Assembly (NCBI RefSeq): GCF_001028665.1
Contig: NZ_CP011504.1
Location: 1,550,001-1,614,000, forward strand
From: Burkholderia pyrrocinia
GTDB lineage: Bacteria > Pseudomonadota > Gammaproteobacteria > Burkholderiales > Burkholderiaceae
DNA: 64,000 nucleotides
Reading direction: 5' to 3'
Positions 34,193 through 47,161 of the stretch are shown piece by piece; the stretch's first letter is position 1; each line of letters starts with the position of its first letter. Under the pieces are notes generated by a model. That model was not told where the DNA came from. It was given only the letters and a program-made list of their open reading frames with translations, and ran no database searches. A program made the position numbers and the translations under genes.

Positions 34193-35140
34193 TCATGGCG
34201 CGCCGAGCACGCGGCCGTTCACGCTGAGCCCGTACATCGAGTCGGGCGAATCGTGGAACTTCGCGCGCGTGTCCTGCACGGAGCCCGTGAAGCGCGGATC
34301 CTGCGGACGTTCGTGGCTGTCCATGAAGGTCGCGACGTCCCACGCCTCCTGATCGGTCAGCGTGCCGCCGAGCCCGAGCGGCATGTTGGCCTTGATGAAG
34401 CCGGCCGCATTGCGGATGTCGCCCATCCCCGCACCCCAGTTGAACGAGCGCGCGCCCCACAGCGCCGGGAAAGCCGGCTTGCCGCCGCTCGACTGGCCCT
34501 GGCCGTCCGCGCCGTGGCACAGCGCGCAGTGCTGCGTGTAGACGGCGGCGCCGCGCGCGTAGTCGGCCTTCTGCGCGGGCGGCGGCAGTTTCGGGAAGCC
34601 TTGCCCCGGCAGCTTCGTGCCGACCGGCGCGCCCTTCGCGAGCCAGTACGAATACGTTTCGAGCGCGACGAGGATCGGGTCGCCGGCCGGCGGCGCCTTG
34701 CCGTTCATGCTGTATTGGAAGCAGCCCTGCAGCCGTTCGGCGAACGTGTTCACGTGCCCGTTCTTGCTGCGGTAGGCCGGATACAGCAGGTACGCGGCCC
34801 ACATCGGGCTCGAGTCGGGCCGGCGGCCCGCATCGAGGTGGCAGCTCGCGCAGGTCAGCTTGTTGCCGACGTACTTGCCCGCGAACTCGGGCGTGTGCAG
34901 GAAGATCTGCTCGCCGAGCTTCACGGTCTTGCCGAAGCCGTCGGCGGGCATCGCGGATTCGGCGGGCGGCGTGAACGGCTTGGCCGTCGCTGCGGTTGCG
35001 GCCGGTGCCGGTGTGGTCACGGGTGCGGAAGCGGCGGCCGGCGTGTCCTGTGGCGCCGCCGCGAACGTGAGCGCGGGCATCCAGGCCGCGCCGAGCAGCA
35101 AGGCGCGTGCGCGGCGGATCAGCGTCGTGCGGTCGATCAT
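34193..35140 (-). CDS. tsdA: Diheme cytochrome c, probable thiosulfate dehydrogenase TsdA
   Basis: A 315-residue periplasmic cytochrome with a signal peptide. Heme sites are CASCH (97-101) and CALCH (205-209). Between them lie HLDAGRRPDSSPMWAAYLLY, RLQGCFQYSMNGKAP and SYWLAKGAPVG, then GADGQGQ, SFNWGAGMGDI, GFIKANMPLG and DSHERPQDPRF, the layout of TsdA enzymes that join two thiosulfates to tetrathionate (or do the reverse). Cys140 in LQGC is the probable unusual Cys axial ligand of heme 1. The start codon overlaps the stop of the tsdB-like gene (ATGA at 35137-35140). The reaction direction cannot be read from sequence. Confidence 0.85.
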   Translation of the reverse strand: MIDRTTLIRRARALLLGAAWMPALTFAAAPQDTPAAASAPVTTPAPAATAATAKPFTPPAESAMPADGFGKTVKLGEQIFLHTPEFAGKYVGNKLTCASCHLDAGRRPDSSPMWAAYLLYPAYRSKNGHVNTFAERLQGCFQYSMNGKAPPAGDPILVALETYSYWLAKGAPVGTKLPGQGFPKLPPPAQKADYARGAAVYTQHCALCHGADGQGQSSGGKPAFPALWGARSFNWGAGMGDIRNAAGFIKANMPLGLGGTLTDQEAWDVATFMDSHERPQDPRFTGSVQDTRAKFHDSPDSMYGLSVNGRVLGAP

Positions 35141-35823
35141 CGCTTGTCTCCTTGTGCGGCGCCGCCGCGCGCATAGTAGGCGGCCACCGCGTCGATGTCG
35201 GCATCCGACAGCTTGCCGGCGATCATCGGCATCAGCGCCATCGGCCCGGGCGGGCGCGTGCCGTGTTTCCAGCCGTTCAACTGGCCGGCGATATACGCGG
35301 CAGGCTGCCCCGCGAGCGGCGGAAATGCGCTGCCGACGCCGAGGCCGCCGGGGCCGTGACATTGCGCGCACGCGGGCAGGCCCTGCGACCAGCGCCCGCG
35401 CGTCGCGAGCCACACGCCGGTGTTCGCGGGATCCACCGACGCGGTGTCGGGGGTGAAGACGCCGGCCGGCGCGGACAGGCTCGCGAAGTACGCGGATACC
35501 GCGTCGCGTTCGTGCGGCGTCAGCAGTTTCGACAGCGGTTGCATGACGGGATTCTGGCGGCTGCCGTCCGCGAATGCGGCAAGCTGCGCGGACAGATACG
35601 CGGCGTTCGTGCCCGCGAGACGCGGGAAGCCGGCCGCCGCATTCCCTTCACCCTGGCTGCCGTGGCAGCCGATGCAGGCGGCGACGCCCGTCGCCGAGCC
35701 CTGTGTCGCGAGCGTCTTGCCGAGCGTCGCGTCGTCTGCGTGCGCATGGCCGGCCAGCAGCGCCGCTGCGGCAAGCAGCAGCGGTGCGAACCGGCGTCGC
35801 CGTGTGTCGACCGTATCGTTCAC
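35137..35823 (-). CDS. tsdB: Diheme cytochrome c4-like, probable TsdB electron acceptor
   Basis: A 228-residue periplasmic protein with a signal peptide ending near AGHAHA and two c4-type halves. Heme sites are CIGCH (50-54) and CAQCH (152-156); GFPRLAG and FPPLAGQPAAYI precede the methionine-ligand segments NPVMQPL and ALMPMIAG. TsdB-type cytochromes take electrons from TsdA. The GTG at 35823 was chosen because AAGGAGGGG lies 6 bases upstream, the best ribosome site of the operon, and the signal peptide starts there. It overlaps tsdA by 4 bases, so expression is coupled. A general cytochrome c4 is the alternative. Confidence 0.82.
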   Translation of the reverse strand: MNDTVDTRRRRFAPLLLAAAALLAGHAHADDATLGKTLATQGSATGVAACIGCHGSQGEGNAAAGFPRLAGTNAAYLSAQLAAFADGSRQNPVMQPLSKLLTPHERDAVSAYFASLSAPAGVFTPDTASVDPANTGVWLATRGRWSQGLPACAQCHGPGGLGVGSAFPPLAGQPAAYIAGQLNGWKHGTRPPGPMALMPMIAGKLSDADIDAVAAYYARGGAAQGDKR

Positions 35824-35883
35824 GTGTCCCCTCCTTGTTGTATGTCGCGTGTGCGCCGCCACGCGGCCGGCGCGGCCACGCGG

Positions 35884-36948
35884 TCAGCCGGCGTCGGGCC
35901 GGTCATCCGCCGGCGCGAGGTGCTGCACCGGTGTCGTCGCATCGTATCGCCCGAAGCCGTAGCGCTGGAAGATCCGGAACGCTTCCGGCGACCGGATGAA
36001 CGCGAGCCACGCGCGCGCGGCTTCCGGATGCGGCGCGTCCTTCACCATCGCCCCCGCATAAATCGCCGTCGTATTCTGCGCGGCCGGAATGTCGATGTGC
36101 ATCAGCGGATGCCCGACCTGTTCCTGGAACGCCGCTTCGGATTGCCACAGCACGCCGGCGTCCGCGCGATCCTGCATCAGGAACAGCGCGGTTTCCCGAT
36201 GGTGGATGTGCGTGAGCTCGGTCGTGCCGGCGCGCACCTTGTCGTCGTAGACGGTGCGCGCGAGCGCGTCGCCGCCGGCCTTCACGAGCGAGGCGCGGAT
36301 CTGCCGCGCGACGCCTTCGAATGCCGGGTTCGGCATCGCGAGCTTCACGTCGGGCCGCGCGAGATCGTTCAGCGATGCGATGCGCTTCGGATTGCCCGCG
36401 CGCACCATGATCGTCAACTGGTTCGTCACGTACGGCACGGCGGGGCCCGCGAGCGTGCCGTCCGCGATCAGCCCGTCGATCTTGCCGAGCCCCGCGAAAT
36501 ACGCGTCGGGCTTGACCGTCCACGTCATGTTGCCGACCGTGATCGTGCCGCCCGCTTGGATCTGCTTCACGAGCAGGCCGGGAGGGATCGTTTCCCAGTA
36601 GATGCGGCCGCGGTAGTCGGGATGGTCTTCCTCGAACTTCGCGACGAGCGGCGCCATCGCGAAGAAATAGTTGCCGCCGACGAACAGCACGAGCTTCGGC
36701 GCGGTGAGGTCGCCGTGGAAATCGGCGAGCACGTCGACCTGCGGCACCGTGAATTCGAGGCCACGATGAATCGCGTCGTTGTTGCGGCCTTCCTGCCAGG
36801 GCGGAAAGATGCTTGCGGCGGTGTCGGCGGGTGCGGCGAGCGACAGCGCCGACGCGCAGCACAGCCAGGCGGCCAGCGCGGCGCGCAGCGTGCGCTGCCG
36901 GCGGCGCGACGGCGACTGCGGGTGGATCGAGGTCATCGCGGGCCTCAT
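35884..36948 (-). CDS. Periplasmic substrate-binding protein (type 2 PBP)
   Basis: A 354-residue exported binding protein. The signal peptide is AALAAWLCCASALSLAAPAD after an Arg-rich start. The mature protein has type 2 binding-protein features (LVLFVGGNYFFAMAPLVAKF, then VKLAMPNPAFEGVARQIRAS and ALFLMQDRADAGVLWQSEAA) and resembles anion-binding proteins such as ModA. The ATG at 36948 overlaps the stop of the upstream gene (ATGA), so translation is coupled; 36936 is an alternative start. No ABC permease or ATPase adjoins it, so it may work as a binding or chaperone component of the thiosulfate cytochrome system. Its ligand is unknown. Confidence 0.78.
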   Translation of the reverse strand: MRPAMTSIHPQSPSRRRQRTLRAALAAWLCCASALSLAAPADTAASIFPPWQEGRNNDAIHRGLEFTVPQVDVLADFHGDLTAPKLVLFVGGNYFFAMAPLVAKFEEDHPDYRGRIYWETIPPGLLVKQIQAGGTITVGNMTWTVKPDAYFAGLGKIDGLIADGTLAGPAVPYVTNQLTIMVRAGNPKRIASLNDLARPDVKLAMPNPAFEGVARQIRASLVKAGGDALARTVYDDKVRAGTTELTHIHHRETALFLMQDRADAGVLWQSEAAFQEQVGHPLMHIDIPAAQNTTAIYAGAMVKDAPHPEAARAWLAFIRSPEAFRIFQRYGFGRYDATTPVQHLAPADDRPDAG

Positions 36949-37736
36949 TTCGCGTACGTGAAACCGGCCTGCTGCAATTCGGGCAGCGTGCCGACCGCGC
37001 CGGGCGTGACGATCGCCGACGGGATCACGTGATTGGTCAGGTCGGCCGCGAGCGCGTCGAGCGGCAGCTTGTCGGGATTCGCGTTCGCGCCGTCGAGCCG
37101 TTCCGCGAGTTCCCAGATCGCGTTGTGGCATGACAGGAACACGACGCCGCGCTGTTGCAGCGCGGCGATGCTGTTGTCGTGCGACGAGAAGGCGCCGTCG
37201 GGCAACGCGCGATCCTGCGCGCCTTTCGATTGCGCGGGCTTCGCGTCGAGCAGCGTGTTGGCCGGGAACGCGGCGCCGGCGAATTTCGCGAGGCCGTATT
37301 TGTCCCACGCGGCCTGGTCGAACAGCGCAAGATGCGCGCTGCCGTGCGTGGCCGACACGACGAGGAAATCCGGATGACCGTACGACCAGATCTGCGCGTT
37401 CAGCGAATTGCGCATCAGGTTCAGCCACGGGCCGCCGAGCTCGGTGTTGTCCCACACCTGCTTCGGGCCGCCGCGATAGCCGATCACTTCGGCGAGCGCC
37501 TCGTGATCCCACTGGTCGGGGTGGTTGAGGATCATCGGCACCGTCTTGAAGTCGCGTCGTCTCGGCGCGGCCGCGAGGCGGCGCGTGAGGTCGGCGAGGC
37601 GCGCGGCGCCGCCGGGCAGCAGCGCGCCGGTTTCGGGCGCCGCCGCGTGAGCACGGCGCGCGGCGGCGAGCAGCGCGGTGCCGGCCGCGAGGCCGAGTGT
37701 CTTCAGCGCGCCTCGGCGCGCGTGCCGGTCGGACAT
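36945..37736 (-). CDS. Tat-exported DsrE-like protein
   Basis: A 263-residue protein with a Tat-like N-terminus (RRGALKTLGLAAGTALLAAA; the twin Arg is at residues 7-8). The C-terminal part ends like the DsrE/DsrF sulfur-carrier fold: GVVFLSCHNAIWELAERLDG with Cys203, then VIPSAIVTPGAVGTLPELQQ and AGFTYAK. The match is by pattern, and the rest of the protein is longer than classical DsrE (about 120 residues). It is the first gene of a coupled operon with a binding protein and TsdBA-like cytochromes, and GGGAG lies 8 bases before the ATG at 37736. A periplasmic sulfur-transfer role is inferred from Cys203 and context. Confidence 0.65.
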   Translation of the reverse strand: MSDRHARRGALKTLGLAAGTALLAAARRAHAAAPETGALLPGGAARLADLTRRLAAAPRRRDFKTVPMILNHPDQWDHEALAEVIGYRGGPKQVWDNTELGGPWLNLMRNSLNAQIWSYGHPDFLVVSATHGSAHLALFDQAAWDKYGLAKFAGAAFPANTLLDAKPAQSKGAQDRALPDGAFSSHDNSIAALQQRGVVFLSCHNAIWELAERLDGANANPDKLPLDALAADLTNHVIPSAIVTPGAVGTLPELQQAGFTYAK

Positions 37737-38012
37737 GGCATATCTCCCAGGATCGTTGTTGTGGGGGCGTGTCGCGTTGCCGTGCGGCGGCGCAGCGTCG
37801 CCATCGCGTAGCCAGTCTAGAGGCGCGCGATCGATCCCGGAAATCGCGATATCGGATGGGAGATATTCGGGGGTCTGATGATTCGGCGGGAGGGCACCGG
37901 CTGACGCGGTATCGTGCGCGGGGTACGGCTTGCGCCGCCGGCCCGCGTGCGTCGATTGCCTCCAGCGGGCGTGTCCAGCGCATTTGCGCATGGCCTCCGG
38001 TTCGGCGAACAC

Positions 38013-38432
38013 TCAGCCGCGGTCGACCGAAAAGCGTCCCGGGCCCGCTGCACAGAGCGCGAGAAGCCCCCCCATGATCGACAGGTTCTTGTAGAAATGA
38101 ATCATGTTGTTCATCTGCTGGGAGCCATCCGTCAACCAGAATGGGTGACCGATAATCGCGGCGCCGAGCGTATAGAGTGCGAGCAGCAACGCGACGGGGC
38201 GGGTATGGAATCCGATCAGAATCGCGATCGCAACGACGACGTCCATTGCGATCAGGATCGCCGCTGCCAGCATTGGCATGGGTGCGTCGATGCGGGTCAT
38301 GTAGGCGATTGCTCCGCCGAAGTCCATCAACTTTGGAATCCCGATTTTCAAGTAAAGTGCAACGATCAGCACACGGGCGATCAACAGCAGGAAATCCTGA
38401 AATGTGTTTGGCAGTTGTGGTCGGGTTGTCAT
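38013..38432 (-). CDS. DoxX family membrane protein
   Basis: A 139-residue protein with four predicted helices, beginning MTTRPQLPNTFQDFLLLIAR and containing the DoxX region IGIPKLMDFGGAIAYMTRID, IGHPFWLTDG and NMIHFYKNLSIMGGLLAL. DoxX proteins are linked to membrane redox and thiol-stress complexes. It is the last gene of the lower-GC operon below the LysR regulator, 58 bases after the DHA2-type pump. DoxD/DoxA subunits of thiosulfate:quinone reductase share the name, and the thiosulfate genes begin 276 bases further on, but base composition and spacing group this gene with the island. Confidence 0.85.
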   Translation of the reverse strand: MTTRPQLPNTFQDFLLLIARVLIVALYLKIGIPKLMDFGGAIAYMTRIDAPMPMLAAAILIAMDVVVAIAILIGFHTRPVALLLALYTLGAAIIGHPFWLTDGSQQMNNMIHFYKNLSIMGGLLALCAAGPGRFSVDRG

Positions 38433-38490
38433 GGCTCAAGAAGGCGAAAGCGACCGGCACACACTCGGGAGCGCGCAGGTCGCAGATGTT

Positions 38491-40164
38491 TTACGTTGCG
38501 TCGTGACGCGCACCGTCGTCGTTCGGCGCTGAGCCGAACCGGACTTCGAGAATGGTCAGCGTGGTCAGAAGGGCGACGAGGGCTGCTGCTGCGGTCAGTT
38601 GGAATCCGGTGTGCAGGACGTCGCTGAAGACACTGCGCAACGCGTCAATGACATGCTGGCCAGCGAACGGTGCGCCGGCCATCGATTCGATGATCGCGGA
38701 CTGCTTCTTTGGGTCGATGAGCAGTTGGGGGTCTCCCAGCAGGCTGTTCAGGTGCCGGTCGACAGTTGTCACGCCCAGGGTGTTCAGTGCTTGAACCGCA
38801 CCGACCTTGTAGTGGGCCGATACCCAGGCGCCGAGCGTGGATAGCCCCACCATCCCGCCGATCATCCGTGTGGACTGGATGAGCGATGTCGCGATACCGA
38901 CGCGTGTTTTTCCCGCGATCTCCTGCGTGAAGATGTTGACGTTGTTGAGGATAAGCCCCAGGCCGACGCCCGCCCCGAACAACGAAACGATCAGAAGCGC
39001 ATGCGTGTTCGTCAGCGCGACGAGCGACAAGCCATAGCAGGCGAGCACGAGCATCGAGAAGCCGGTGAGCACGATGATCGCAGGGCGCTCGACGCGCGTG
39101 ACGATTGCCGTGTTGAACAGACTGCCGACGGCTATCGACGCGGCGAGCGGCGTCGATAGCCTGCCTGCCGCCGTAGCGGACAGTCCGAAGCCGCTCTGGA
39201 GCAGCAATGGCGCATAGAAGATCGTCGAAAACATCACCGCGCCGGTCAGAAACGAAAGCCCGAGCAACGTCAGGATGCGTCGATTGCGCAGCAGGTCGAG
39301 GGGTACCAGCGGTGCTGCTGCGCGCCGTTCGCAACGCACGAACAATGCGACAAGCACGGGCAGGCTGGCGATTGCGATGCAGCGCAGTTGTGTCGACGCT
39401 TCGCCAAGCTCGCTGCTGAACGCGAACAACATGCATCCCAGCAACAAGGAGAGCACCAGCGCTCCGGCGATGTCGATACGGATTCGCGTTCCCGACGACG
39501 GGGCGAGGCGCGGGAGATAGCGTTGTGTGAAGTAGAGTGCCGCGAACCCGACCGGCAAGTTGATCACGAATGTCGAGCGCCAGCCGTATTGATCGGTCAG
39601 CCATCCACCCAGGGACGGCCCCGCGGCGGTACCGATGCCGTATGCCGCAGCGAGTACGACCTGCCATCGGGCGCGTTCCAGCGGCGCGGGAAACAGATCC
39701 GGTATCGAGGCGAACGCGGTCCCCGTCATCATCCCGGCACCGATGCCCTGAAGCGCTCGTGCGGCGACGAGCGTAGCCATGTTCGGGGCGGATGCACACA
39801 GGACGGAGGCTGCGGTAAACGTCGCGATTGCGCCGATGACGAATGGTTTGCGCCCGTAGTAGTCACCCAGTCGACCGAAAATCGGTACGGTAATCAACGA
39901 CGTCAACAGATACGCGGTCGCTATCCACGTGTACCATTCGAAGCCGCCCAATGTTGCGACGATCTGTGGCAGCGCCGTGCTGACGGTGGTTTGATCGAGC
40001 GCGACGAGCATATTGACGATCCCGATACCTGTCATGGCGGCCAGCGACTGACCGAACGGGCGTGGCGATGCGGATGGCGTGGGTACGGCGGAGAGGGATG
40101 GCAGTTCTGCCGGAACAAGGGACGACGCGCCGCCGGTAGCCGGCGCTTTGGCTGGGGATTGCAT
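38491..40164 (-). CDS. DHA2-family (14-helix) MFS multidrug efflux pump
   Basis: A 557-residue permease of the EmrB/QacA type with about 14 hydrophobic segments. Signature motifs include LDQTTVSTALPQIVATLGGF near the first helix, GRLGDYYGRKPFVIGAI (loop 2-3), ALQGIGAGMMTGTAFASIPD and GWRSTFVINLPVG. Such pumps export drugs or toxic intermediates by proton antiport. The ATG at 40164 was chosen; the longer frame is low-quality. It lies in the lower-GC operon after the quinol-monooxygenase-like gene (149-base gap) and before doxX. A second pump of a different MFS family lies at the other side of the same regulon. Confidence 0.92.
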   Translation of the reverse strand: MQSPAKAPATGGASSLVPAELPSLSAVPTPSASPRPFGQSLAAMTGIGIVNMLVALDQTTVSTALPQIVATLGGFEWYTWIATAYLLTSLITVPIFGRLGDYYGRKPFVIGAIATFTAASVLCASAPNMATLVAARALQGIGAGMMTGTAFASIPDLFPAPLERARWQVVLAAAYGIGTAAGPSLGGWLTDQYGWRSTFVINLPVGFAALYFTQRYLPRLAPSSGTRIRIDIAGALVLSLLLGCMLFAFSSELGEASTQLRCIAIASLPVLVALFVRCERRAAAPLVPLDLLRNRRILTLLGLSFLTGAVMFSTIFYAPLLLQSGFGLSATAAGRLSTPLAASIAVGSLFNTAIVTRVERPAIIVLTGFSMLVLACYGLSLVALTNTHALLIVSLFGAGVGLGLILNNVNIFTQEIAGKTRVGIATSLIQSTRMIGGMVGLSTLGAWVSAHYKVGAVQALNTLGVTTVDRHLNSLLGDPQLLIDPKKQSAIIESMAGAPFAGQHVIDALRSVFSDVLHTGFQLTAAAALVALLTTLTILEVRFGSAPNDDGARHDAT

Positions 40165-40313
40165 GGTGCTTTGATTCGGATCGGTCGCGGTCCGGGATAG
40201 CGGGTTGACGCGATGGAGATCGGGGAGGGAGATACATCCCGATGGAAGCGAGGGAGGATGCAAGGAAGCCGAGCCGTCTCCGGAACCGGCGTTCCTTCAC
40301 GCATCCGGATGCG

Positions 40314-40604
40314 TTACTGGACCTTCCTGGTGATGAGCAATTCCTTGCGCTCGACGAGATCCGGAACAAGCGTGCGGTAGGTGGCGATATGTGGCGTATT
40401 CAAGTGCCCGTCGAGCGCTTCCTGACTCTCCCAGATCTCGTGGAAGACGAAGATGCGGGGATTCCGCAGGTCGCGACTGAGTTCGTAGCGGATCATGCCC
40501 GGGTCGCTTCGGGTCGGGGCGACGAGGCTGCTCAGCAGCGCTTCGAGCGCGGCTTCCTTTCCGGCCTTCGCTACGTTGATGGAGATAACGACGATTTCAG
40601 ACAT
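40314..40604 (-). CDS. Antibiotic biosynthesis monooxygenase (ABM) domain protein
   Basis: A 96-residue single-domain protein of the ABM/YgiN type, a dimeric ferredoxin-like barrel. Motifs are VISINVAKAGKEAALEALLS, RSDPGMIRYELSRDLRNPRI and FVFHEIWESQEALDGHLNTP. Family members are cofactor-free oxygenases acting on quinols or polyketides, or quinone-reduction partners. It follows the cupin gene by 17 bases in the island operon, so the two are very likely coexpressed. The substrate is unknown. Confidence 0.9.
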   Translation of the reverse strand: MSEIVVISINVAKAGKEAALEALLSSLVAPTRSDPGMIRYELSRDLRNPRIFVFHEIWESQEALDGHLNTPHIATYRTLVPDLVERKELLITRKVQ

Positions 40605-40621
40605 GCTCTATGCTCTTTGAG

Positions 40622-41059
40622 TCAGTTTTGTTCCAGGGTGCGCAGGGGTTGCCCCTTGGCGCCGGCAAAGAACACGACCATCTCGGCCGGTTCGTCGGTC
40701 GTATAGCCGTGGTGAATCGTTCCGACGGTGTCCGCGATGACCTGTCCCGCGGTAAACGTCGTCCGGGATTCACCGTTCTTTTTCTCGACAGTGAGCCTGC
40801 CGCTCAACAGATAGACAGCGTTGACCACACCGTGGCTATGCCACGGAAGCGTCGTGTGAGCAGGGATTCGCACGTGCTGCACGTCGATGAGCGGCGTACC
40901 TTCCGGATAATGCGTGTAGTAGGCGCCATCCCATGATTGCGACGTGTGCGCGAGCGGCATGACCGTCACCCCCTCCTCGGACGCTTGCGCGCCGGAAGCG
41001 AGTGACAGCGCACTGATTGCAGCCGCCAGAAAACGGATGGGCCACTTCGTCTGGTTCAT
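40622..41059 (-). CDS. Exported cupin-domain protein
   Basis: A 145-residue protein with a signal peptide (FLAAAISALSLASGAQA) and a single cupin barrel. The metal-binding motif is seen as PWHSHGVVNAVYLLSGRLTV, with a second conserved segment GQVIADTVGTIHHGYTTDEP. Small exported cupins may be oxygenases, isomerases or lectin-like; the true activity is unclear. The ATG at 41059 opens the signal peptide. It is 38 bases after the ThDP enzyme and 17 bases before the ABM gene on the minus strand. Confidence 0.85.
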   Translation of the reverse strand: MNQTKWPIRFLAAAISALSLASGAQASEEGVTVMPLAHTSQSWDGAYYTHYPEGTPLIDVQHVRIPAHTTLPWHSHGVVNAVYLLSGRLTVEKKNGESRTTFTAGQVIADTVGTIHHGYTTDEPAEMVVFFAGAKGQPLRTLEQN

Positions 41060-41097
41060 TCTTTTCAACGTCCCGTATCGTTCAGTCTCTTTCAACA

Positions 41098-42933
41098 TCA
41101 ATCGATGCACTCGGGGGTGTCGATTGCTGCGGCCGGCGAGGCGGCATATGCGTCGACCTGCTCGTTCTTCGTTGGTGCTGCCGTCGAGGATTCGGCGTAG
41201 TAACGGTTTGGCGAAGGGAAGACACCCACGGCCACTTCAATGACGAAGGGCCCGTCGCATGCCGACGCGTCGCCGACGGCCTGCTCGAGACCGGCCAGGC
41301 AATCGACCTGGCGGGCCGGCACTCCCACCGATTGGGCGAACCGTGTCCAGTCGTGGCGAGGCAACTTGCTGAACTGCTCTGCGACGGTTCGCTTGGTGAT
41401 GGCGTCGATGTGAATCGCACCGTGAGCGGAGTTGTTCAGGACGATAAAGATCACCTTGATCCCGTAACGAGCCGCGGTTTGAATCTCCATTCCGTGCATC
41501 AGCATGCAGCCGTCCCCGGTGACCACGAGGCAGGGGCGATGCGGTGCGGCGAGCTTGACACCAATCCCGGCTGCGACTGCCCAACCCATCGGGGCAAGCG
41601 CGCTCGACGAGAAGTAGTTTCCGAGGCCTGACGAGAGCCAGTAGTGCGCCATGAAGATTCGATGCGCACCTGAATCGACGACAACGTTGGTGTCGTCTGG
41701 CACAAGGTCGCAGAGCCGTCGGACGACGTCACCCGGATAGAGTGAAAGTGAATCGGATGCGCTTCCGATCGACGTAGGTTCGAAGCGATGATCGTAAAGC
41801 GGAGCGTGCTTGACACGCTCGAGCCACGCATCCCGGTGGGCGAATGCCGCCTGGAATTCCTGTGCTGATCCCGCCGGCATATGCGCGAGCATTCGAATGG
41901 TCGCAGTAATGCCGGAGAAAATGCTTCGGCTCGGAACGTGGCCGGTTGCCGGCGCATCGAAGCTGTCGTCGAAAATGACGAGTTCCTTGCCGGCGCTCAG
42001 CTTGTCGCTCCAATTCAGACTGTCGCGTTGATTGAGATCGCAACCAAGAACGACGAGTGCATCGAGATCGTTTGAGTTGATCAGTTGTACCGCTCGCGTG
42101 TGCCCGGAAAATCCATAAACACCCAACGCAAGGGGGTGCCGCTCGGGAAAGGCGCCTTTGCCGGACAGAGTTGTCGCAACCGGAATATTGAATCGTTCGG
42201 CAACCTTGAGCAGGACCTGGGCAGTCTCCGGATCGTTTCCGCGACCACCGACGAGAAATGCAACCTTCTTTTCCTGAAAGAGATATTGCTTGCAAAGTGC
42301 CTGCACCGCGACCGGGTTGGCCGGGACATGGTTCATGTCCACGATGCTTTGGGCGTAGGGGCGTTGCATTCGATCGTGCGGGACCGGCACCGGTTGCTGT
42401 TGAACGTCGAGCGGGATGCTGATGAACGAACGGGCACGTCGCATCCAGTTCAGACCGTCGGTAGCCCGACGCATTTCCGCCAGAAGGTTGTGCTTGTTTT
42501 TCAGTTCGACAATGTCGTCGACGAGATTTTGCACCACGCTGCTTTCGGCGATTCCTCCCAGCGTACCGTCCTGGAACGCACCTTTTCCCTCGGCGTTGGA
42601 CGATATGCCGCCGGCAAGATAGAGAACCGGGATTCGATCGGCGAGGGCGGCGGCCATGCCGGGAACGAGATTCATCGTGCCGGGCCCGGAGATGGCGAGA
42701 CACACACCGAACTTGCGACTGGCTCGTGCGTAACCGTCGGCCATGAAGGCACTGCCGGTCTCGTGTGCGGCAACGATGCCACGAATTTCTGGCGTCTTGT
42801 CCATCGCGTCAAGCAACGGATAAACCATCTTTCCGGGGACCAGAAAAATGTGGTCGATGTGCAGCGACCGGAGGAGATTCATAACGCTTCCCGAAACGTC
42901 GCATCGGGCCGGAATGTGAGTTGCCTTTTCCAT
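41098..42933 (-). CDS. ThDP-dependent enzyme, acetolactate-synthase-like
   Basis: A 611-residue thiamine-diphosphate enzyme with the three-domain AHAS/POX layout. Catalytic Glu58 sits in VAAHETGSAFMADGYARAS. The cofactor motif is TGDGCMLMHGMEIQTAARYG, then VIFIVLNNSAHG. The middle domain (LLKVAERFNIPVATTLSGKG) is present. It lacks the residues that would let me separate acetolactate synthase from a 2-keto-acid decarboxylase or lyase, and a regulatory small subunit is absent, so biosynthesis of branched amino acids is unlikely. It heads the lower-GC operon facing the LysR gene and probably performs the key catabolic or detoxifying step. The ATG at 42933 lacks a strong ribosome site; residue 18 (MNLLRSL) is an alternative start. 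Confidence 0.85.
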   Translation of the reverse strand: MEKATHIPARCDVSGSVMNLLRSLHIDHIFLVPGKMVYPLLDAMDKTPEIRGIVAAHETGSAFMADGYARASRKFGVCLAISGPGTMNLVPGMAAALADRIPVLYLAGGISSNAEGKGAFQDGTLGGIAESSVVQNLVDDIVELKNKHNLLAEMRRATDGLNWMRRARSFISIPLDVQQQPVPVPHDRMQRPYAQSIVDMNHVPANPVAVQALCKQYLFQEKKVAFLVGGRGNDPETAQVLLKVAERFNIPVATTLSGKGAFPERHPLALGVYGFSGHTRAVQLINSNDLDALVVLGCDLNQRDSLNWSDKLSAGKELVIFDDSFDAPATGHVPSRSIFSGITATIRMLAHMPAGSAQEFQAAFAHRDAWLERVKHAPLYDHRFEPTSIGSASDSLSLYPGDVVRRLCDLVPDDTNVVVDSGAHRIFMAHYWLSSGLGNYFSSSALAPMGWAVAAGIGVKLAAPHRPCLVVTGDGCMLMHGMEIQTAARYGIKVIFIVLNNSAHGAIHIDAITKRTVAEQFSKLPRHDWTRFAQSVGVPARQVDCLAGLEQAVGDASACDGPFVIEVAVGVFPSPNRYYAESSTAAPTKNEQVDAYAASPAAAIDTPECID

Positions 42934-43080
42934 CTTTTTATGCTTTTTCTTTCGATCTGAAACGATCTATGCGAGTCGAATACGCCGGCTGTATTTTTAA
43001 AACCCTCAATATGGCGAGGGAAATCACGGTTGCCGGAATGCCGCGATATACCGTTTGATACGGGGGCCTGATTATCTCTG

Positions 43081-43109
43081 TTGGAGAGCATGGGCTCAAC
43101 TTGTATAAT
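43081..43109 (+). promoter_or_regulatory. Sigma70 promoter of the LysR gene
   Basis: TTGGAG (43081-43086), a 17-base spacer and a perfect TATAAT (43104-43109). The ATG is 48 bases after the -10. The regulator palindrome begins inside the -10. Confidence 0.7.
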
Positions 43110-43127
43110 TGCATCCAAAGAATGCAA
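43109..43127. promoter_or_regulatory. LysR-type operator 1 (T-N11-A palindrome)
   Basis: TTGCAT (43109-43114), 7 bases, ATGCAA (43122-43127): a perfect 6-bp inverted repeat with T43110-N11-A43122, the LysR core. It overlaps the LysR -10, so binding would repress the regulator, and it faces the ThDP operon 176 bases away. A near copy lies at 45389-45407. Confidence 0.7.
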
Positions 43128-43156
43128 AAGTGCTTTACCGAGAGAGAACGTTATTC

Positions 43157-44032
43157 ATGAATTGGGACGATGCACGCGTCTTTTTGGCAGTTCATCGCGC
43201 CGGGACGCTGCGCGAGGCTGCAGTTTTTCTCGATGTCGATCAGGCAACCGTGGGGCGGCGGCTGACGGCACTTGAGAAGGCGCTGGGTGCGAAGCTGTTT
43301 CTCAAGACGTCGTCCGGCTATGTCGTGACGCAGATCGGCGAGCATTCGCTGCAGGCCGCGGAGGAGATGGAGCGAGCGGCATACGAGTTCGAGCGCCGCG
43401 CGCATGGCTCGGACGACCGGCTCGAAGGTGAGGTTCGGGTGACGACAACCGATTCCCTGGCGATGGATTTTGTCGTTCCCGCAATACGGGCGTTACGGCG
43501 GAAATATCCCGGGATACACGTGGTCCTGACGACTTCCGTGCAGGTGCTCAACCTGACGCGACGTGATGCGGATCTCGCGATTCGAACCGTGATGCCGGAA
43601 AATCCCGATCTCGTCCGCCGGAAGCTGGCCGAATGGGAGGTCGGGCTGTTCGCGAGTCGCGAGTATCTGGATGCGCGTGGTGCCCCCGCGATCGGTTCCG
43701 CTTTCGAAGGTCATGATCTGGTGGTCTACCAGCCCTCCGTCACGTCCAACCAGGGGCTCTCGCTATGCGGCGAGTCGATGGAACAAGGGCGCGTCGTCGC
43801 GCAAGTGAGTTCGAGCCTGATGCTGGCGACATCGATCCGGTCGGGCATCGGAATAGGCGAGCTCCCGGTGTATATGGCGCAGGCGGACGATTCGCTCGTG
43901 CGCATCTGGCCCGACAGGACTCGAACCGCGCCGTACCAGGTCTGGCTCGTGTCGCATACGGACCTGAACCGGACGGCGCGCGTTCGGGCGGTCACCGACG
44001 AGATCGCTGCTTCGTTCGACCGCTATCGATAA
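43157..44032 (+). CDS. LysR family transcriptional regulator
   Basis: A 291-residue LysR regulator. The helix-turn-helix is MNWDDARVFLAVHRAGTLRE followed by AAVFLDVDQATVGRRLTALE and KALGAKLF. The C-terminal part is a type 2 binding-protein-like effector domain (VRVTTTDSLAMDFVVPAIRA). The ATG at 43157 was chosen because it begins the family N-terminus. It faces the ThDP operon across 223 bases and is 33 bases from the end of the Bcr/CflA pump gene, which converges with it. Palindromes of matching sequence at its own promoter and upstream of that pump argue that it controls both transcripts. Confidence 0.92.
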   Translation: MNWDDARVFLAVHRAGTLREAAVFLDVDQATVGRRLTALEKALGAKLFLKTSSGYVVTQIGEHSLQAAEEMERAAYEFERRAHGSDDRLEGEVRVTTTDSLAMDFVVPAIRALRRKYPGIHVVLTTSVQVLNLTRRDADLAIRTVMPENPDLVRRKLAEWEVGLFASREYLDARGAPAIGSAFEGHDLVVYQPSVTSNQGLSLCGESMEQGRVVAQVSSSLMLATSIRSGIGIGELPVYMAQADDSLVRIWPDRTRTAPYQVWLVSHTDLNRTARVRAVTDEIAASFDRYR

Positions 44033-44065
44033 CGGCCGGGATCTCGTCGGTGCAAGGCCGGGTGT

Positions 44066-45268
44066 TTAACGTGGCAGGGTCTTGCGCATCGAGAGCGTGC
44101 GCCGCGCGGCATACCAGCGGGGGACGATCGCGACCGCGGCGACGATCGCGAAGAACGGAATTGCCGTCGCCAGCACGTGGCTTCCGGTACCGAGCAGGCC
44201 GCTGGACACGGTGGCTGCGAGCGACGCGCTGCCGATCTGGAAGAAGCCGACCAGTCCGGACGCCGTGGCGGCGCGCCCATGTTCGCTCGCGATGGCGCCC
44301 GAGACGGCGAGTGACAGCGACGATCCGTTTGACAGGCTGACGAGAAACATCGGCACGACGATTGCGATGATGCCTTTGAATTGCCACGACTCGCACAACG
44401 CGAACGCAACGCCGCCGGCGACGAAGCAGCACACCCCGGCCACGACGATCGAGTCGTAGGACATCCGGTCGAGCATGCGGCGCGAGATCATGTTCGCGGA
44501 AATGATGCCGGCGGTCAGCGGCAGATAAAGCCAGCCGCTTTGCTGTTCCGAAAGACCGAGGCCGGAAAAGATGAAGGGCGATTGCGTCAGGTAGACGAAC
44601 CACGCGCAATAGATTGCGCAGACGACGAGCGTATACCGGATGAACACGCGATCTCCGAGCACGTCGGAGAAACCGGCCAGCGGAACTGCGCGATGTTGGC
44701 CCGGCGCGACGGGCGGCCGCGTTTCTTTCAGAAGCAGTTGGACCAGCGCGAGCGCGACTGCGCCAAATCCGGCGACGAAAACGAAATCGCTCCGCCACCC
44801 GAACCAGGCGGCCAGATATCCGCCGATCGCCGGGGCGATTGCCGGAGACAGCGAGACGAGCGGATACACGATGCTGTAGACCTTTGCGGATTCCTTTTTG
44901 TCGCAGGTGTCGGCGATGATTGCGCGGCCGATCACGAGGCCGGAAGCCGCGCCGAGGGCCTCGAGCACTCGCCATCCGAGAAAGCTCGCGAAGCCGCCGG
45001 CACTTGCGCAGCCGATCGAGCCAAGAATGTACAGAAGGATCCCGACCGTCAGCACGGGTTTGCGCCCCCATCGATCGGAGAGGGGGCCGTAGAACAGCTG
45101 GGCGCACGCGAGCGCGATCAGGTAGGCCGATACCGTCTGCGGCATCTGCCATGCACCGATTGAAAATTCATGGGCCATCGATGGCATGGCGGGCAGGTAG
45201 ACGTCGGACGCGATCAGGCCGAAGGCGCTCAACATTGAGACGACAAGTATCAGTGAGAAGTTGGACAT
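44066..45268 (-). CDS. Bcr/CflA family MFS efflux pump
   Basis: A 400-residue, 12-helix drug/metabolite exporter. The Bcr/CflA signature is VVSMLSAFGLIASDVYLPAM, with LFYGPLSDRWGRKPVLTVG in the 2-3 loop and SGLVIGRAIIADTCDKKESA. Such pumps export bicyclomycin, chloramphenicol, sulfonamides or small peptides; the real substrate here is probably tied to the LysR operon. The start at 45268 (MSNFSLI) begins the first helix; the upstream frame is low-quality. Its promoter region carries a LysR-like palindrome 121-139 bases upstream. Confidence 0.92.
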   Translation of the reverse strand: MSNFSLILVVSMLSAFGLIASDVYLPAMPSMAHEFSIGAWQMPQTVSAYLIALACAQLFYGPLSDRWGRKPVLTVGILLYILGSIGCASAGGFASFLGWRVLEALGAASGLVIGRAIIADTCDKKESAKVYSIVYPLVSLSPAIAPAIGGYLAAWFGWRSDFVFVAGFGAVALALVQLLLKETRPPVAPGQHRAVPLAGFSDVLGDRVFIRYTLVVCAIYCAWFVYLTQSPFIFSGLGLSEQQSGWLYLPLTAGIISANMISRRMLDRMSYDSIVVAGVCCFVAGGVAFALCESWQFKGIIAIVVPMFLVSLSNGSSLSLAVSGAIASEHGRAATASGLVGFFQIGSASLAATVSSGLLGTGSHVLATAIPFFAIVAAVAIVPRWYAARRTLSMRKTLPR

Positions 45269-45668
45269 ATTCGCTGGGTTGTTGTGGCGAAACGCGTAAG
45301 CGGATGAAGATGGCGACGCGCATTGGGCGGCCTTGAGAAACGGCGAGGGGATCATACGGCGTACGATGCGGTTCGCGATCAGACGGAATTGCATCGCTGG
45401 GATGCATTTTCGCGGTCGTCGGAGTTGTTGCCGGGGACGCATGCGAATGACGGCGTCAGGTGTCGCGCGGGCCGGCTGTCAACAGGATTCCGGCGCTATA
45501 TCGAGCGATTTTCCGGCGCATCGCGTATGCGCCTGCCGTGACCGATCATGAAGCGGCCGTGATGCTGCGCAGAGGGGGAACCGAGCCGCCGCGTAGAGCG
45601 AGCGGCACATCGAGGCGGGGTTTGCGCGCGGGCCGTCGCTTGCGGGCCGGCCCACGCGCGTCAGGACG
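45269..45668. other. 400-bp region between the efflux pump and the TonB scar
   Basis: No gene is supported. It contains the pump promoter area with LysR-type site 2 and then GC-rich sequence without recognisable coding signal. It marks the transition from the lower-GC island to typical GC content. Confidence 0.45.
45389..45407. promoter_or_regulatory. LysR-type operator 2
   Basis: TTGCAT (45389-45394), 7 bases, ATGCAT (45402-45407). The flanks match operator 1 (AATTGCAT at both), including T-N11-A. It lies 121 bases upstream of the Bcr/CflA start. Confidence 0.6.
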
Positions 45669-45760
45669 TTAGAGCGACACCGTCGTCAGCGCGTCGGGAA
45701 CTTGCCGGTCGCCGTTTCGCAGGCCGCGAACGCTTCGACGGTCACGTAGCCGCGCGGCGT
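45669..45760 (-). pseudogene. 3' scar of a TonB-dependent receptor gene
   Basis: On the minus strand the sequence reads GYVTVEAFAACETATGKFPTR, then after a frame jump LTTVSL and a TAA at 45669-45671. The intact receptor at 54365-56557 has GYVTVDAFAAYETTIGKFPTR in its last 65 residues and ends LTTTVSF. Comparing 63 bases (45689-45751 against 54485-54547), only 4 differ. About 90 bases between PTR and LTT are deleted. Similarity runs up to the MFS stop codon at 45760-45762, so the receptor body was replaced or removed exactly there. Non-functional. Confidence 0.8.
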
Positions 45761-47034
45761 CAGTGCGCCGCGCGTTCGCGCAGGACTTCCGACGGCCGGC
45801 TGTTGCGCACGAATACGGCTGCCAGCACGGCGCCCGTCAGCGCGATCGCGCCGGCCAGCACGAACGCGGTCGCGAACGAGCCGCTGCGTTCGACGATGAA
45901 GCCGGTCACGGCCGGCCCGATCACGCCCGACAGGCTGCCCATGCAGTGCAGGAAGCCGCTCACGCCGCCGACGCGCGTCGGGTGCACGACATCCTGCACG
46001 ATCGCCCAGTAGATCGCGCCGGTGACGTACAGGAAGAACAGCGACACGGACATCAGCGCGACCGCGCCTTGCGTCGACTGCACGGTGCCCGCGATCGCGA
46101 CGCATGCACCCGCGCCGAGCAGGCACGTGACGAGCACGATCCGGCGCGACAGCAGCAGGTTGCCGGTGAGCCGGTAGAGCGCATCCGAGATGGCGCCGCC
46201 GCACGCGAGGCCGACCGTGCCGACGAGCCAGGGCACGACGGTGGCGATGCTCATCTCCTTGATGTTGAGGTGGTGCGCGCGCACGAGATAGCTCGGGAAC
46301 CAGCTCAGGAAGAAGAACAGCACGTAGTTGTAGCTGAAGAACGCGGCCGCCGTGGCGAGGATGCGCGGCTGGCGCACGTAGTGCGACAGCGTGCGCGCGG
46401 GCGCCGATGCGTCGTCGTCACCCGAGCGGGCGGCGGCAGGCACGTCCGGCGCGTTGTTTACCGGTGCGGCGGGACGATCCGACGTCGACACCATCCACAG
46501 CACGACCCACGCGAGCCCGATCGCGCAGACGATCCAGAACGCCGGCCGCCAGCCGAACTGCGCGGCCAGCAGGCCGACGATCGGCCCCGCGATCGCGCCG
46601 CCGAGCGGCGAGCCCGCGCTGAGCAGGCCCATCGCGGTCGCGGCGGCGTCGCGCGGCAGCCAGTTGTTGACCATCTTGTTCGCGGCCGAGCACAGCGGGC
46701 CCTCGGCCATGCCGAACAGCAGCCGCACGATCAACAGGCTCACGAAGCCGACGGTCAGCGCGGTCATCCCGCAGAAGATCGACCAGAGGCCGACCGACAG
46801 CACGTACACGAGCTTCGGCCCGAGCCGGTCGGACGCGAGGCCGCCGATGAAATTGAACAGCGCATAACCGACGAAGAACGTGCTGAAGACGAGGCCCATC
46901 TGCGCGGCGTCGATACCGAGATCGGTCTGCACGATCGGCGCGACGATCGACAGCGCGACACGGTCGAGATAGTTGATGCCGTACACGAGAAACAGCAGGA
47001 ATACCGTGAACCACGCCTGCGACTTTTGCTTCAT
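45760..47034 (-). CDS. MFS transporter, anion:cation symporter (ACS) family, sugar-acid type
   Basis: A 424-residue, 12-helix permease. The start MKQKSQAWFTVFLLFLVYGI followed by NYLDRVALSIVAP is the hexuronate/galactarate/glucarate (GudP/ExuT-like) N-terminus. GGLASDRLGPKLVYVLSVGL and FGMAEGPLCSAANKMVNNWL are further family motifs. AAGGAG lies 7 bases before the ATG at 47034. It is 127 bases downstream of the mannonate/fructuronate-type oxidoreductase and likely cotranscribed with it. Its stop codon sits directly on a degraded TonB receptor tail. The substrate is probably a sugar acid such as mannonate, fructuronate or gluconate. Confidence 0.9.
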   Translation of the reverse strand: MKQKSQAWFTVFLLFLVYGINYLDRVALSIVAPIVQTDLGIDAAQMGLVFSTFFVGYALFNFIGGLASDRLGPKLVYVLSVGLWSIFCGMTALTVGFVSLLIVRLLFGMAEGPLCSAANKMVNNWLPRDAAATAMGLLSAGSPLGGAIAGPIVGLLAAQFGWRPAFWIVCAIGLAWVVLWMVSTSDRPAAPVNNAPDVPAAARSGDDDASAPARTLSHYVRQPRILATAAAFFSYNYVLFFFLSWFPSYLVRAHHLNIKEMSIATVVPWLVGTVGLACGGAISDALYRLTGNLLLSRRIVLVTCLLGAGACVAIAGTVQSTQGAVALMSVSLFFLYVTGAIYWAIVQDVVHPTRVGGVSGFLHCMGSLSGVIGPAVTGFIVERSGSFATAFVLAGAIALTGAVLAAVFVRNSRPSEVLRERAAH

Positions 47035-47161
47035 GTTCGTCTCCTTCGTGCCGGTGGGCCGGCCGTCATGTCTGGTCTGTCGTTCGCCGCGCCGGCATGC
47101 GCGCCAGCGGGAAGGTGTCATGCGGTTCGCGCGTGGCAGCGCAAACCGGTCGTGCGGTCGG

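What the first reader, a model, noticed from the sequence alone, without database searches (positions are those of the whole stretch)
38013..45407. LysR-controlled lower-GC island of unknown chemistry: ThDP enzyme, exported cupin, ABM oxygenase, DoxX and two unrelated efflux pumps
Seen: five minus-strand genes (ThDP enzyme, cupin, ABM protein, 14-TM pump, DoxX) face a LysR gene, and a Bcr/CflA pump follows it. Base content is lower: 33 of 60 bases are G/C in 42181-42240, against 45 of 60 in 60301-60360. Known: cupins and ABM proteins often handle oxygenated aromatics or quinols, ThDP enzymes cleave or join 2-keto acids, DoxX proteins sit in membrane redox complexes. Inference: a transferred module that converts a toxic carbonyl or quinone-type compound and exports it or its products. 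I do not recognise this gene set as a named pathway, and the exported cupin next to a cytoplasmic ThDP enzyme is unusual.
Basis: partly seen in the sequence, partly recalled or inferred. Interest (0 to 1): 0.7.

Follow-up and report, generated by a model that had tools for sequence, protein, structure and literature searches.

The report
LysR-controlled ThDP carboligase and pump island
A small block of acquired genes seems to let one regulator switch on a probable carbon-joining enzyme, an exported helper protein and efflux pumps together; the same regulator, DNA switch and enzyme pair occur in Serratia, but the chemical they handle is still unknown.

Summary
In detail: seven genes (DoxX, DHA2-type pump, ABM, exported cupin, ThDP enzyme, LysR, Bcr/CflA pump) form a 61% GC block in 68% GC DNA. 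It is a clean 7.9-kb insertion: five sister Burkholderia genomes carry 26-69 bp there, and 3 of 61 genomes carry this enzyme gene at 98-100% identity.

The ThDP enzyme is not an ordinary acetolactate synthase. It scores under half the curated cut-off, has no partner subunit beside it, and has Asp where AHAS has its acceptor Arg and Trp. Its nearest solved fold is "ThDP-dependent HKA synthase".

New here: the divergent LysR-ThDP-exported-cupin core recurs in Serratia and Rouxiella with an orthologous LysR. A shared motif, TGCATC-N5-GATGCA, lies in the LysR/ThDP promoter and before a separate pump gene. Its only perfect copy in the 7.96-Mb genome is the one before Bcr. A -10-like hexamer starts 41-42 bp from its centre at four kinds of promoter, although the Burkholderia and Serratia pumps are not close kin. 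So the Bcr pump probably belongs to the same LysR regulon.

Best reading: a LysR-activated carboligation-and-export module. Substrate, product, and whether it makes or detoxifies something, are unknown.

The parts
37884..45749 (.). inserted block (genomic island) between a thiosulfate dehydrogenase gene (36945-37736) and an MFS transporter gene (45760-47037); boundaries good to about 25 bp
   Evidence: five sister genomes join the two flanks with 26-69 bp between them; GC 61.3% vs 68.3%
38013..38432 (-). DoxX-family membrane protein (139 aa)
   Evidence: Pfam DoxX 56.1 bits, cut-off 23.6
38491..40164 (-). DHA2-type MFS exporter
   Evidence: Pfam MFS_1 173 bits; best NCBIfam EmrB 178.9 bits, below its 230.2 cut-off
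40314..40604 (-). ABM-fold protein (96 aa)
   Evidence: Pfam ABM 69.9 bits; PDB 1x7v 42.2 bits
40622..41059 (-). exported three-His cupin
   Evidence: Pfam Cupin_2 31.5 bits, cut-off 27.2; H74, H76, H116 conserved; Sec-like signal peptide by eye; AF2 cupin fold
41098..42933 (-). ThDP-dependent enzyme, predicted carboligase
   Evidence: Pfam TPP_enzyme N, M and C; E58, D474, N500, N501 invariant in 44 rows; nearest fold HKA synthase 8x3x
43071..43099 (-). predicted promoter of the ThDP operon (TTGAGC-17-GATAAT)
   Evidence: 4 promoter-like sites in the region, 2.1 expected; -10 starts 42 bp from motif centre
43082..43109 (+). predicted LysR promoter (TGGAGA-16-TATAAT), abutting the motif
43110..43126 (.). 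predicted operator copy 1, TGCATCCAAAGAATGCA (extended three half-sites 43110-43136)
   Evidence: best site of the 64-kb window in the scan
43157..44032 (+). LysR-type regulator
   Evidence: Pfam HTH_1 + LysR_substrate; reciprocal best hit with the Serratia regulator
44066..45268 (-). Bcr/CflA-family MFS exporter
   Evidence: TIGR00710 249.3 bits, cut-off 200.9
45390..45406 (.). predicted operator copy 2, TGCATCGCTGGGATGCA, perfect, upstream of the Bcr/CflA gene
   Evidence: only perfect copy in 7,961,346 bp
45351..45356 (-). predicted -10 hexamer TATGAT of the pump promoter, 42 bp from motif centre

Best explanation
A horizontally acquired LysR regulon that couples C-C bond formation to export. 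Inferred: the LysR protein binds TGCATC-N5-GATGCA and, with an unknown co-inducer, activates two transcription units. One is ThDP-cupin-ABM-DHA2 pump-DoxX; the other is the Bcr/CflA pump. It represses its own gene, whose predicted -10 abuts the motif. Inferred from fold and residues: the ThDP enzyme decarboxylates a 2-keto acid and adds the acyl carbanion to an acceptor (carboligation, as in HKA synthase and AHAS). The AHAS acceptor Arg and Trp are both Asp here, so the acceptor is probably neutral or cationic rather than a 2-keto acid carboxylate. Inferred: the product, an alpha-hydroxy ketone, is pumped out and met outside the cytoplasm by the exported three-His cupin. Shown by comparison: the block, its insertion, the conserved core, the motif and its spacing. 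Not shown: any reaction, metal, inducer, DNA binding or transcript.
For: Clean insertion. LysR and Serratia LysR are reciprocal best hits by a wide margin (257 vs 147 bits; 254 vs 124). Divergent LysR + ThDP + cupin in 10 of 10 Serratia/Rouxiella loci held. Motif: one perfect copy in the whole genome, before the Bcr pump; the LysR/ThDP copy is among the 53 sites with at most 1 mismatch (pattern read backwards: 8). In the Serratia/Rouxiella loci it is in the LysR/ThDP promoter of 10 of 10 and before the separate MFS gene in 9 of 10, at up to 2 mismatches. A -10-like hexamer starts at +42 (both Burkholderia promoters), +42 (Serratia pump, 9 of 9) and +41 (Serratia ThDP, 9 of 9). Composite motif-33 bp-TATGAT pattern: the best match in 6 of 7 genomes is this pump promoter, reversed control 0 of 7. 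The two pumps are not close kin (BLASTP E 0.09), so the shared layout is not merely one copied pump gene. Enzyme: E58, Q121, D474, N500, N501 in 44 of 44 rows; AF2 model pLDDT 86.3, best PDB fold 8x3x 'ThDP-dependent HKA synthase', E 1.1e-47; phmmer 257 bits to it versus 161 to the best AHAS. D510 in 25 of 25 and D299 in 24 of 25 of the closer relatives.
Against: No substrate is known; identity to HKA synthase is only 29%. In 17 of 17 distinct Paraburkholderia/Caballeronia/Trinickia loci examined the enzyme (65-69%) has no cupin and no close LysR beside it but a chemoreceptor gene, so there it works without the exported cupin. Rouxiella lacks the pump motif and has its ThDP -10 candidate at +46. 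The Serratia promoters hold further -10 candidates (+17; +21; +32 in most), so the spacing there is a choice among several. The motif was derived from these sequences, so the shuffle test is after the fact; within the window at 2 mismatches it has 8 matches where shuffles give 3.6 on average and 3 of 100 reach 8, other 1-2-mismatch sites lie in Serratia loci outside these promoters, and 10 places of the own genome match the composite at up to 3 mismatches. No expression data.
Confidence: 0.5

Rival explanations
1. Detoxification module: LysR senses a toxic carbonyl, quinone or natural product; the ThDP enzyme consumes it by ligation and the two pumps and exported cupin clear it.
For: Both pumps are most like drug-exporter families; the one-LysR, two-unit layout with a pump under its own motif copy suits an export response; ABM and DoxX proteins often sit in redox-stress operons (recalled).
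Against: No substrate evidence; ABM, DHA2-type pump and DoxX are not in the conserved core. It predicts nothing in the sequence that the biosynthesis reading does not, so genomics cannot separate them.
Confidence: 0.33
2. A stray acetolactate synthase paralog making acetolactate/acetoin.
For: AHAS-like fold; several sources name relatives 'acetolactate synthase'.
Against: 244.3 bits against a TIGR00118 cut-off of 538.35, AlsS models likewise under half; no small-subunit gene in the block; AHAS Arg and Trp replaced by Asp, shared by the closer relatives.
Confidence: 0.07
3. Two or more unrelated gene sets that landed together (a chance island); only LysR-ThDP-cupin is a unit and the rest are passengers.
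For: cupin-ABM-DHA2 pump occurs without ThDP/LysR in L086; DoxX has no conserved partner in the loci compared.
Against: The Bcr pump carries the only perfect motif of the genome at the same spacing; the minus-strand genes run closely spaced behind the ThDP promoter; a metagenome contig length of 8,685 bases is listed for ThDP, cupin and ABM relatives alike.
Confidence: 0.1

Closest known systems
ThDP-dependent HKA synthases: 8x3x/8xod (BbmA), 8x3z (CsmA); HKA read as alpha-hydroxy-beta-keto acid from PMC12395478
   Same: Nearest solved fold and best sequence match; same three-domain layout and catalytic Glu
   Different: 29% identity; the specificity position (Trp in IlvI, G484 in BbmA, changed to F in 8xod) is Asp510 here; BbmA is outside the clade in the tree (with a long-branch warning)
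Acetohydroxyacid synthase / catabolic AlsS
   Same: Fold and ThDP/Mg motif
   Different: Scores under half the family cut-offs; acceptor Arg and Trp replaced by Asp; no small subunit in the block
LysR-type divergent regulons (LTTR)
   Same: Divergent promoter, palindromic motif containing T-N11-A, motif centre about 54 bp before the expected start (the 54 by hand)
   Different: A second promoter, for a pump, shares motif and spacing; the pump differs between Burkholderia and Serratia
Small metal cupins (DddQ, TM1459, quercetinase, Mn hydroxynitrile lyase)
   Same: Fold; HxH...H metal-type residues
   Different: Query-normalised TM 0.44-0.59 and 11-23% identity among the 50 matches listed; the usual metal Glu position is not Glu; exported

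Membership tests
Biosynthetic acetolactate synthase (TIGR00118) | Score at or above curated cut-off 538.35 | tested here: not met
   244.3 bits
Biosynthetic acetolactate synthase (TIGR00118) | Adjacent regulatory (IlvH-type) subunit | tested here: not met
   none among the ORFs and family hits of the block; E. coli ilvIH pair for contrast; rest of genome not tested
Biosynthetic acetolactate synthase (TIGR00118) | Acceptor-site Arg (RFDDR) and Trp (GMVxQW); their role is recalled | tested here: not met
   Arg->D299, Trp->D510; D299 24/25, D510 25/25 in closer relatives
ThDP decarboxylase/carboligase superfamily | Catalytic Glu and GDG...NN ThDP/Mg motif | tested here: met
   window has E58, G473-D474-G475...N500-N501; E, D, N, N in 44/44 rows, the two G in 43/44 each
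HKA synthase | Nearest fold and sequence | tested here: met
   8x3x rank 1; 257 bits
HKA synthase | Condensation of two 2-keto acids to an alpha-hydroxy-beta-keto acid | not testable with these tools
   needs enzyme assay
HKA synthase | Same specificity residue (BbmA G484) | tested here: not met
   aligned residue is D510
LysR-type regulator | HTH_1 plus LysR_substrate domains | tested here: met
LysR-type regulator | Palindromic site with T-N11-A in a divergent promoter | tested here: met
   TGCATCCAAAGAATGCA at 43110; T1-A13 and T5-A17 by eye; binding not tested
Bcr/CflA exporter | Score above TIGR00710 cut-off 200.9 | tested here: met
   249.3 bits
Cupin metalloprotein | HxH and distal His of the metal site | tested here: met
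   H74 39/39, H76 39/39, H116 38/39 rows
Cupin metalloprotein | Metal-site Glu of cupin motif 1 | tested here: not met
   position 80 reads N 24, S 10, A 4, I 1 and position 81 A, I or V in 39 rows, never E
Genomic island | Empty site in relatives and deviant composition | tested here: met
Genomic island | Integrase or transposase inside | tested here: not met
   the seven genes fill the block and none is one; a flanking tRNA was not looked for

The most novel reading that the evidence does not exclude
A compact, mobile carboligation-and-export pathway, shared by Burkholderia and Serratia, makes a secreted alpha-hydroxy ketone that acts as a signal or antibiotic. The exported cupin finishes or destroys it outside the cytoplasm, the LysR regulator matches synthesis to export through one operator, and in Paraburkholderia the enzyme is paired with a chemoreceptor that may sense the compound or its precursor.
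Probability: 0.25. Interest if true: 0.75.

Novelty: new variant of a known kind. Interest (0 to 1): 0.5.

Why it matters
It turns an anonymous "acetolactate synthase-like" gene group into a predicted regulon with a testable DNA switch, two pump genes and a clade of ThDP enzymes whose acceptor pocket differs from AHAS. If the chemistry is carboligation, it offers new C-C bond-forming biocatalysts and possibly a new exported small molecule in Burkholderia and Serratia. Two different pumps placed under one motif with the same promoter spacing would be a clear case of exporters being swapped while control is kept.

Tried and rejected
Ordinary acetolactate synthase: rejected. A chance GC dip: rejected by the empty sites. 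A plasmid-borne system: the plasmid search gave 6 records: three large Paraburkholderia replicons (65-66%), one Serratia record that also carries nuo genes, and two 35-36% relatives with other neighbours. Cupin function from structure: no decisive match; the Serratia cupin's hit to (R)-mandelonitrile lyase is far below its cut-off (22 vs 140 bits). Spread of single parts: cupin relatives (E up to 1e-12) in 18 of 200 family genomes (ten of those genomes were read in context); ABM (E up to 1e-25) in 1 of 300 order genomes, the own one; DHA2-type pump (E up to 1e-120) in 180 of 249 family genomes, so a common family, best outside hit 62% in L086's genome. Literature: eight searches. Searches returned no paper. 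One search (BbmA, thiamine) listed 20 of 130 papers and (furanolide, ThDP, acyloin, Burkholderia) 25 of 75; none of those listed describes this set by title or abstract start; the rest were not seen. led to PMC12395478, read as passages; one search also listed PMC7466098, not opened. PMC12247030 was read as passages only and is not relied on. Liu et al., Nat. Chem. 2025, was seen only as a citation inside PMC12395478. What ABM/DoxX operons often do, the AHAS Arg/Trp role and the usual LysR activation distance are recalled.
Full report
WHAT IS THERE. The island aligns out cleanly: in five sister genomes (G035, G258, G024, G001, G015; loci L093-L097) the DNA on both sides of about 37,884-45,749 is continuous, with 26-69 bp in place of the 7.87-kb block. 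Separate searches with the two flanks gave the same picture where both were found close together. The block is 61.3% GC against 68.3% for the rest of the window. The genome is a Burkholderia by its closest enzyme matches (98% to Burkholderia cepacia LK29 and a Burkholderia MAG); the tool names no species for the window. Of 61 genomes searched, 6 match the ThDP protein at E 1e-50 or better, and 3 of these (own included) at 98-100% identity. Of 398 genomes of the family, 16 match at E 1e-100 or better. The seven genes fill the block; none is an integrase or transposase.

THE THDP ENZYME. It has all three TPP_enzyme domains. E58, Q121, D474, N500 and N501 are invariant in 44 aligned proteins and the two Gly of GDG are kept in 43 each. 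It is not a standard acetolactate synthase: 244.3 bits against a cut-off of 538.35 for TIGR00118, and AlsS models likewise score under half their cut-offs. The residues that align with E. coli IlvI Arg (RFDDR) and Trp (GMVxQW) are Asp299 and Asp510. Taking the first 25 rows of alignment A1 (45% identity or more) as the closer relatives, D510 is kept in 25 and D299 in 24; in the 19 other rows position 510 is Arg in 16, Asp in 2, Glu in 1. phmmer puts BbmA first (257 bits), then CsmA (188), then AHAS (161). The AlphaFold2 model (pLDDT 86.3, pTM 0.89) matches 8x3x, "ThDP-dependent HKA synthase", best of the PDB (E 1.1e-47, 29% identity). PMC12395478 (passages) describes CybE as forming an acid by acyloin condensation of two keto acids and cites CsmA and "BpmA" as CybE homologs giving alpha-hydroxy-beta-keto acids; I take "BpmA" and the PDB's "BbmA" to be the same protein. 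Carboligation is therefore the best guess; the two Asp suggest a neutral or cationic acceptor (inference). In the tree the Burkholderia, Paraburkholderia and Serratia enzymes form one supported clade (20 of 37 rows, 100/100), with BbmA outside; the program warned of long branches.

THE CONSERVED CORE. Ten Serratia/Rouxiella loci (L017-L024, L049, L071) have the enzyme at 51-52% (in L049 in several pieces), a divergent LysR (43-45% in the nine measured) and a cupin at 35-39%. The two LysR proteins are reciprocal best hits by a wide margin (257 vs 147 bits in the Burkholderia genome; 254 vs 124 in the S. plymuthica genome). Downstream in Serratia lie a DMT (EamA) transporter and a separate MFS pump. 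In Rouxiella the same order LysR-ThDP-cupin-DMT-MFS lies beside a different upstream gene, so the block sits in another place there. A Paraburkholderia strain (SIMBA_027) has ThDP (74%, P0002) and cupin (68%, P0123) whose listed longest contigs have the same length, 65,643; a metagenome contig length of 8,685 is listed for ThDP (P0004), cupin (P0127) and ABM (P0135) relatives. By contrast, in 17 of 17 distinct Paraburkholderia/Caballeronia/Trinickia loci examined the enzyme gene follows a methyl-accepting chemotaxis gene on the same strand, with no cupin and only two weak (28-29%) LysR matches nearby. Five further fetched loci (L144-L146, L150, L151) were left out because their contig lengths show them to be contigs already in the set.

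THE CUPIN. It carries a Sec-like signal peptide, as do the Serratia cupins (by eye). Across 39 aligned cupins H74 and H76 are kept in 39 and H116 in 38; the exception, L057/L086, has an in-frame internal deletion. Position 80, where the usual metal Glu would fall, reads N, S, A or I, and position 81 A, I or V. The fold search gives general small cupins and no function.

THE MOTIF. Comparing intergenic regions revealed shared half-sites, whose core is TGCATC-N5-GATGCA. In the 7,961,346-bp genome there is one perfect copy, at window 45390-45406, in front of the Bcr/CflA gene; 53 places have at most one mismatch, one of them at 43110-43126 in the LysR/ThDP promoter (the pattern read backwards gave 8). 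The other 51 places were not examined for nearby genes. In the window at up to 2 mismatches there are 8 matches against 3.6 expected from shuffles; 3 of 100 shuffles reach 8. In the Serratia/Rouxiella loci the motif lies in the LysR/ThDP promoter in 10 of 10 and directly before the MFS pump frame in 9 of 10 (two promoter copies and one pump copy with 2 mismatches; Rouxiella lacks the pump copy); a few 1-2-mismatch sites also lie elsewhere in these loci. A -10-like hexamer starts +42 from the motif centre in both Burkholderia promoters (the only candidate found there) and at the Serratia pump, and +41 at the Serratia ThDP promoter; in Serratia weaker or equal candidates also stand at +17, or at +21 and in most also +32, and Rouxiella's ThDP promoter has its candidate at +46. 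A composite pattern (motif, 33 bp, TATGAT) finds this pump promoter as the best match in 6 of 7 genomes (0-2 mismatches); the seventh (Rouxiella) has only 3-mismatch places elsewhere; the reversed control gave 0 in all 7. At up to 3 mismatches the own genome has 10 places, which include both island promoters and the pump palindrome read the other way. The Burkholderia and Serratia pumps align only at E 0.09, so they are different pumps under the same kind of promoter. Ten of the 17 chemoreceptor-type loci were scanned and lack the motif at one mismatch. The motif was found on these sequences, so the shuffle result (1 of 1000 for the window; 0 of 1000 for the four Serratia/Rouxiella loci tested) is after the fact; the genome-wide uniqueness and the spacing are better evidence.

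HOW IT LIKELY WORKS. The motif sits between the predicted LysR promoter (-10 at 43104-43109, next to the motif) and the LysR gene, and just upstream of the predicted ThDP promoter on the other strand (TTGAGC-17-GATAAT; 4 promoter-like sites in that scan, 2.1 expected). An expected start about 54 bp from the motif centre (by hand) is a usual place for an activating LysR protein (recalled). With co-inducer it would switch on ThDP-cupin-ABM-DHA2-DoxX and, through the second motif copy, the Bcr pump. The enzyme would make a carboligation product, the pumps export it, and the exported cupin acts on it outside the cytoplasm. Steps shown by comparison: block, insertion, conservation, motif, spacing, enzyme class. 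Steps inferred: binding, activation, reaction, product, export, order of action.

NOVELTY. I found no description of this set in the eight paper searches named under Tried and rejected, which saw open-licence papers only. The parts are of known kinds; the combination with a shared two-promoter motif and this ThDP clade is a new variant.

Noticed in passing
   Followed up: partly
L009-L016, L045, L048, L072, L143, L147-L149, L152, L153: In 17 of 17 of these loci the ThDP gene follows a methyl-accepting chemotaxis gene (4HB/Tar-type sensor in the one scanned, L012) on the same strand: a chemoreceptor-enzyme pair.
   Followed up: partly
L049 (10001-11652): Serratia rubidaea NCTC12971 ThDP gene matches only in several pieces, so it may be decayed or mis-sequenced.
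   Followed up: no
L071: A Serratia record filed as a plasmid carries nuo genes beside this block, so it is perhaps a chromosome piece or a mis-filed record.
   Followed up: no
L073 (5113-9931): Pandoraea vervacti conjugative plasmid pPV15 has a 36% ThDP relative with a SAM methyltransferase, a hypothetical gene and an MFS pump: another small cluster of unknown product.
   Followed up: no
L074 (4506-9719): Paraburkholderia phenoliruptrix plasmid pSYMBR3459 has a 35% ThDP relative with acetaldehyde dehydrogenase, dmpG aldolase and a carboxymuconolactone decarboxylase-like gene.
   Followed up: no
window 36945-37736: The left flank of the island is a thiosulfate dehydrogenase (TetH) gene (409.7 bits, cut-off 300), with cytochrome c-like frames (CxxCH motifs, by eye) further left at 34193-35862.
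   Followed up: no
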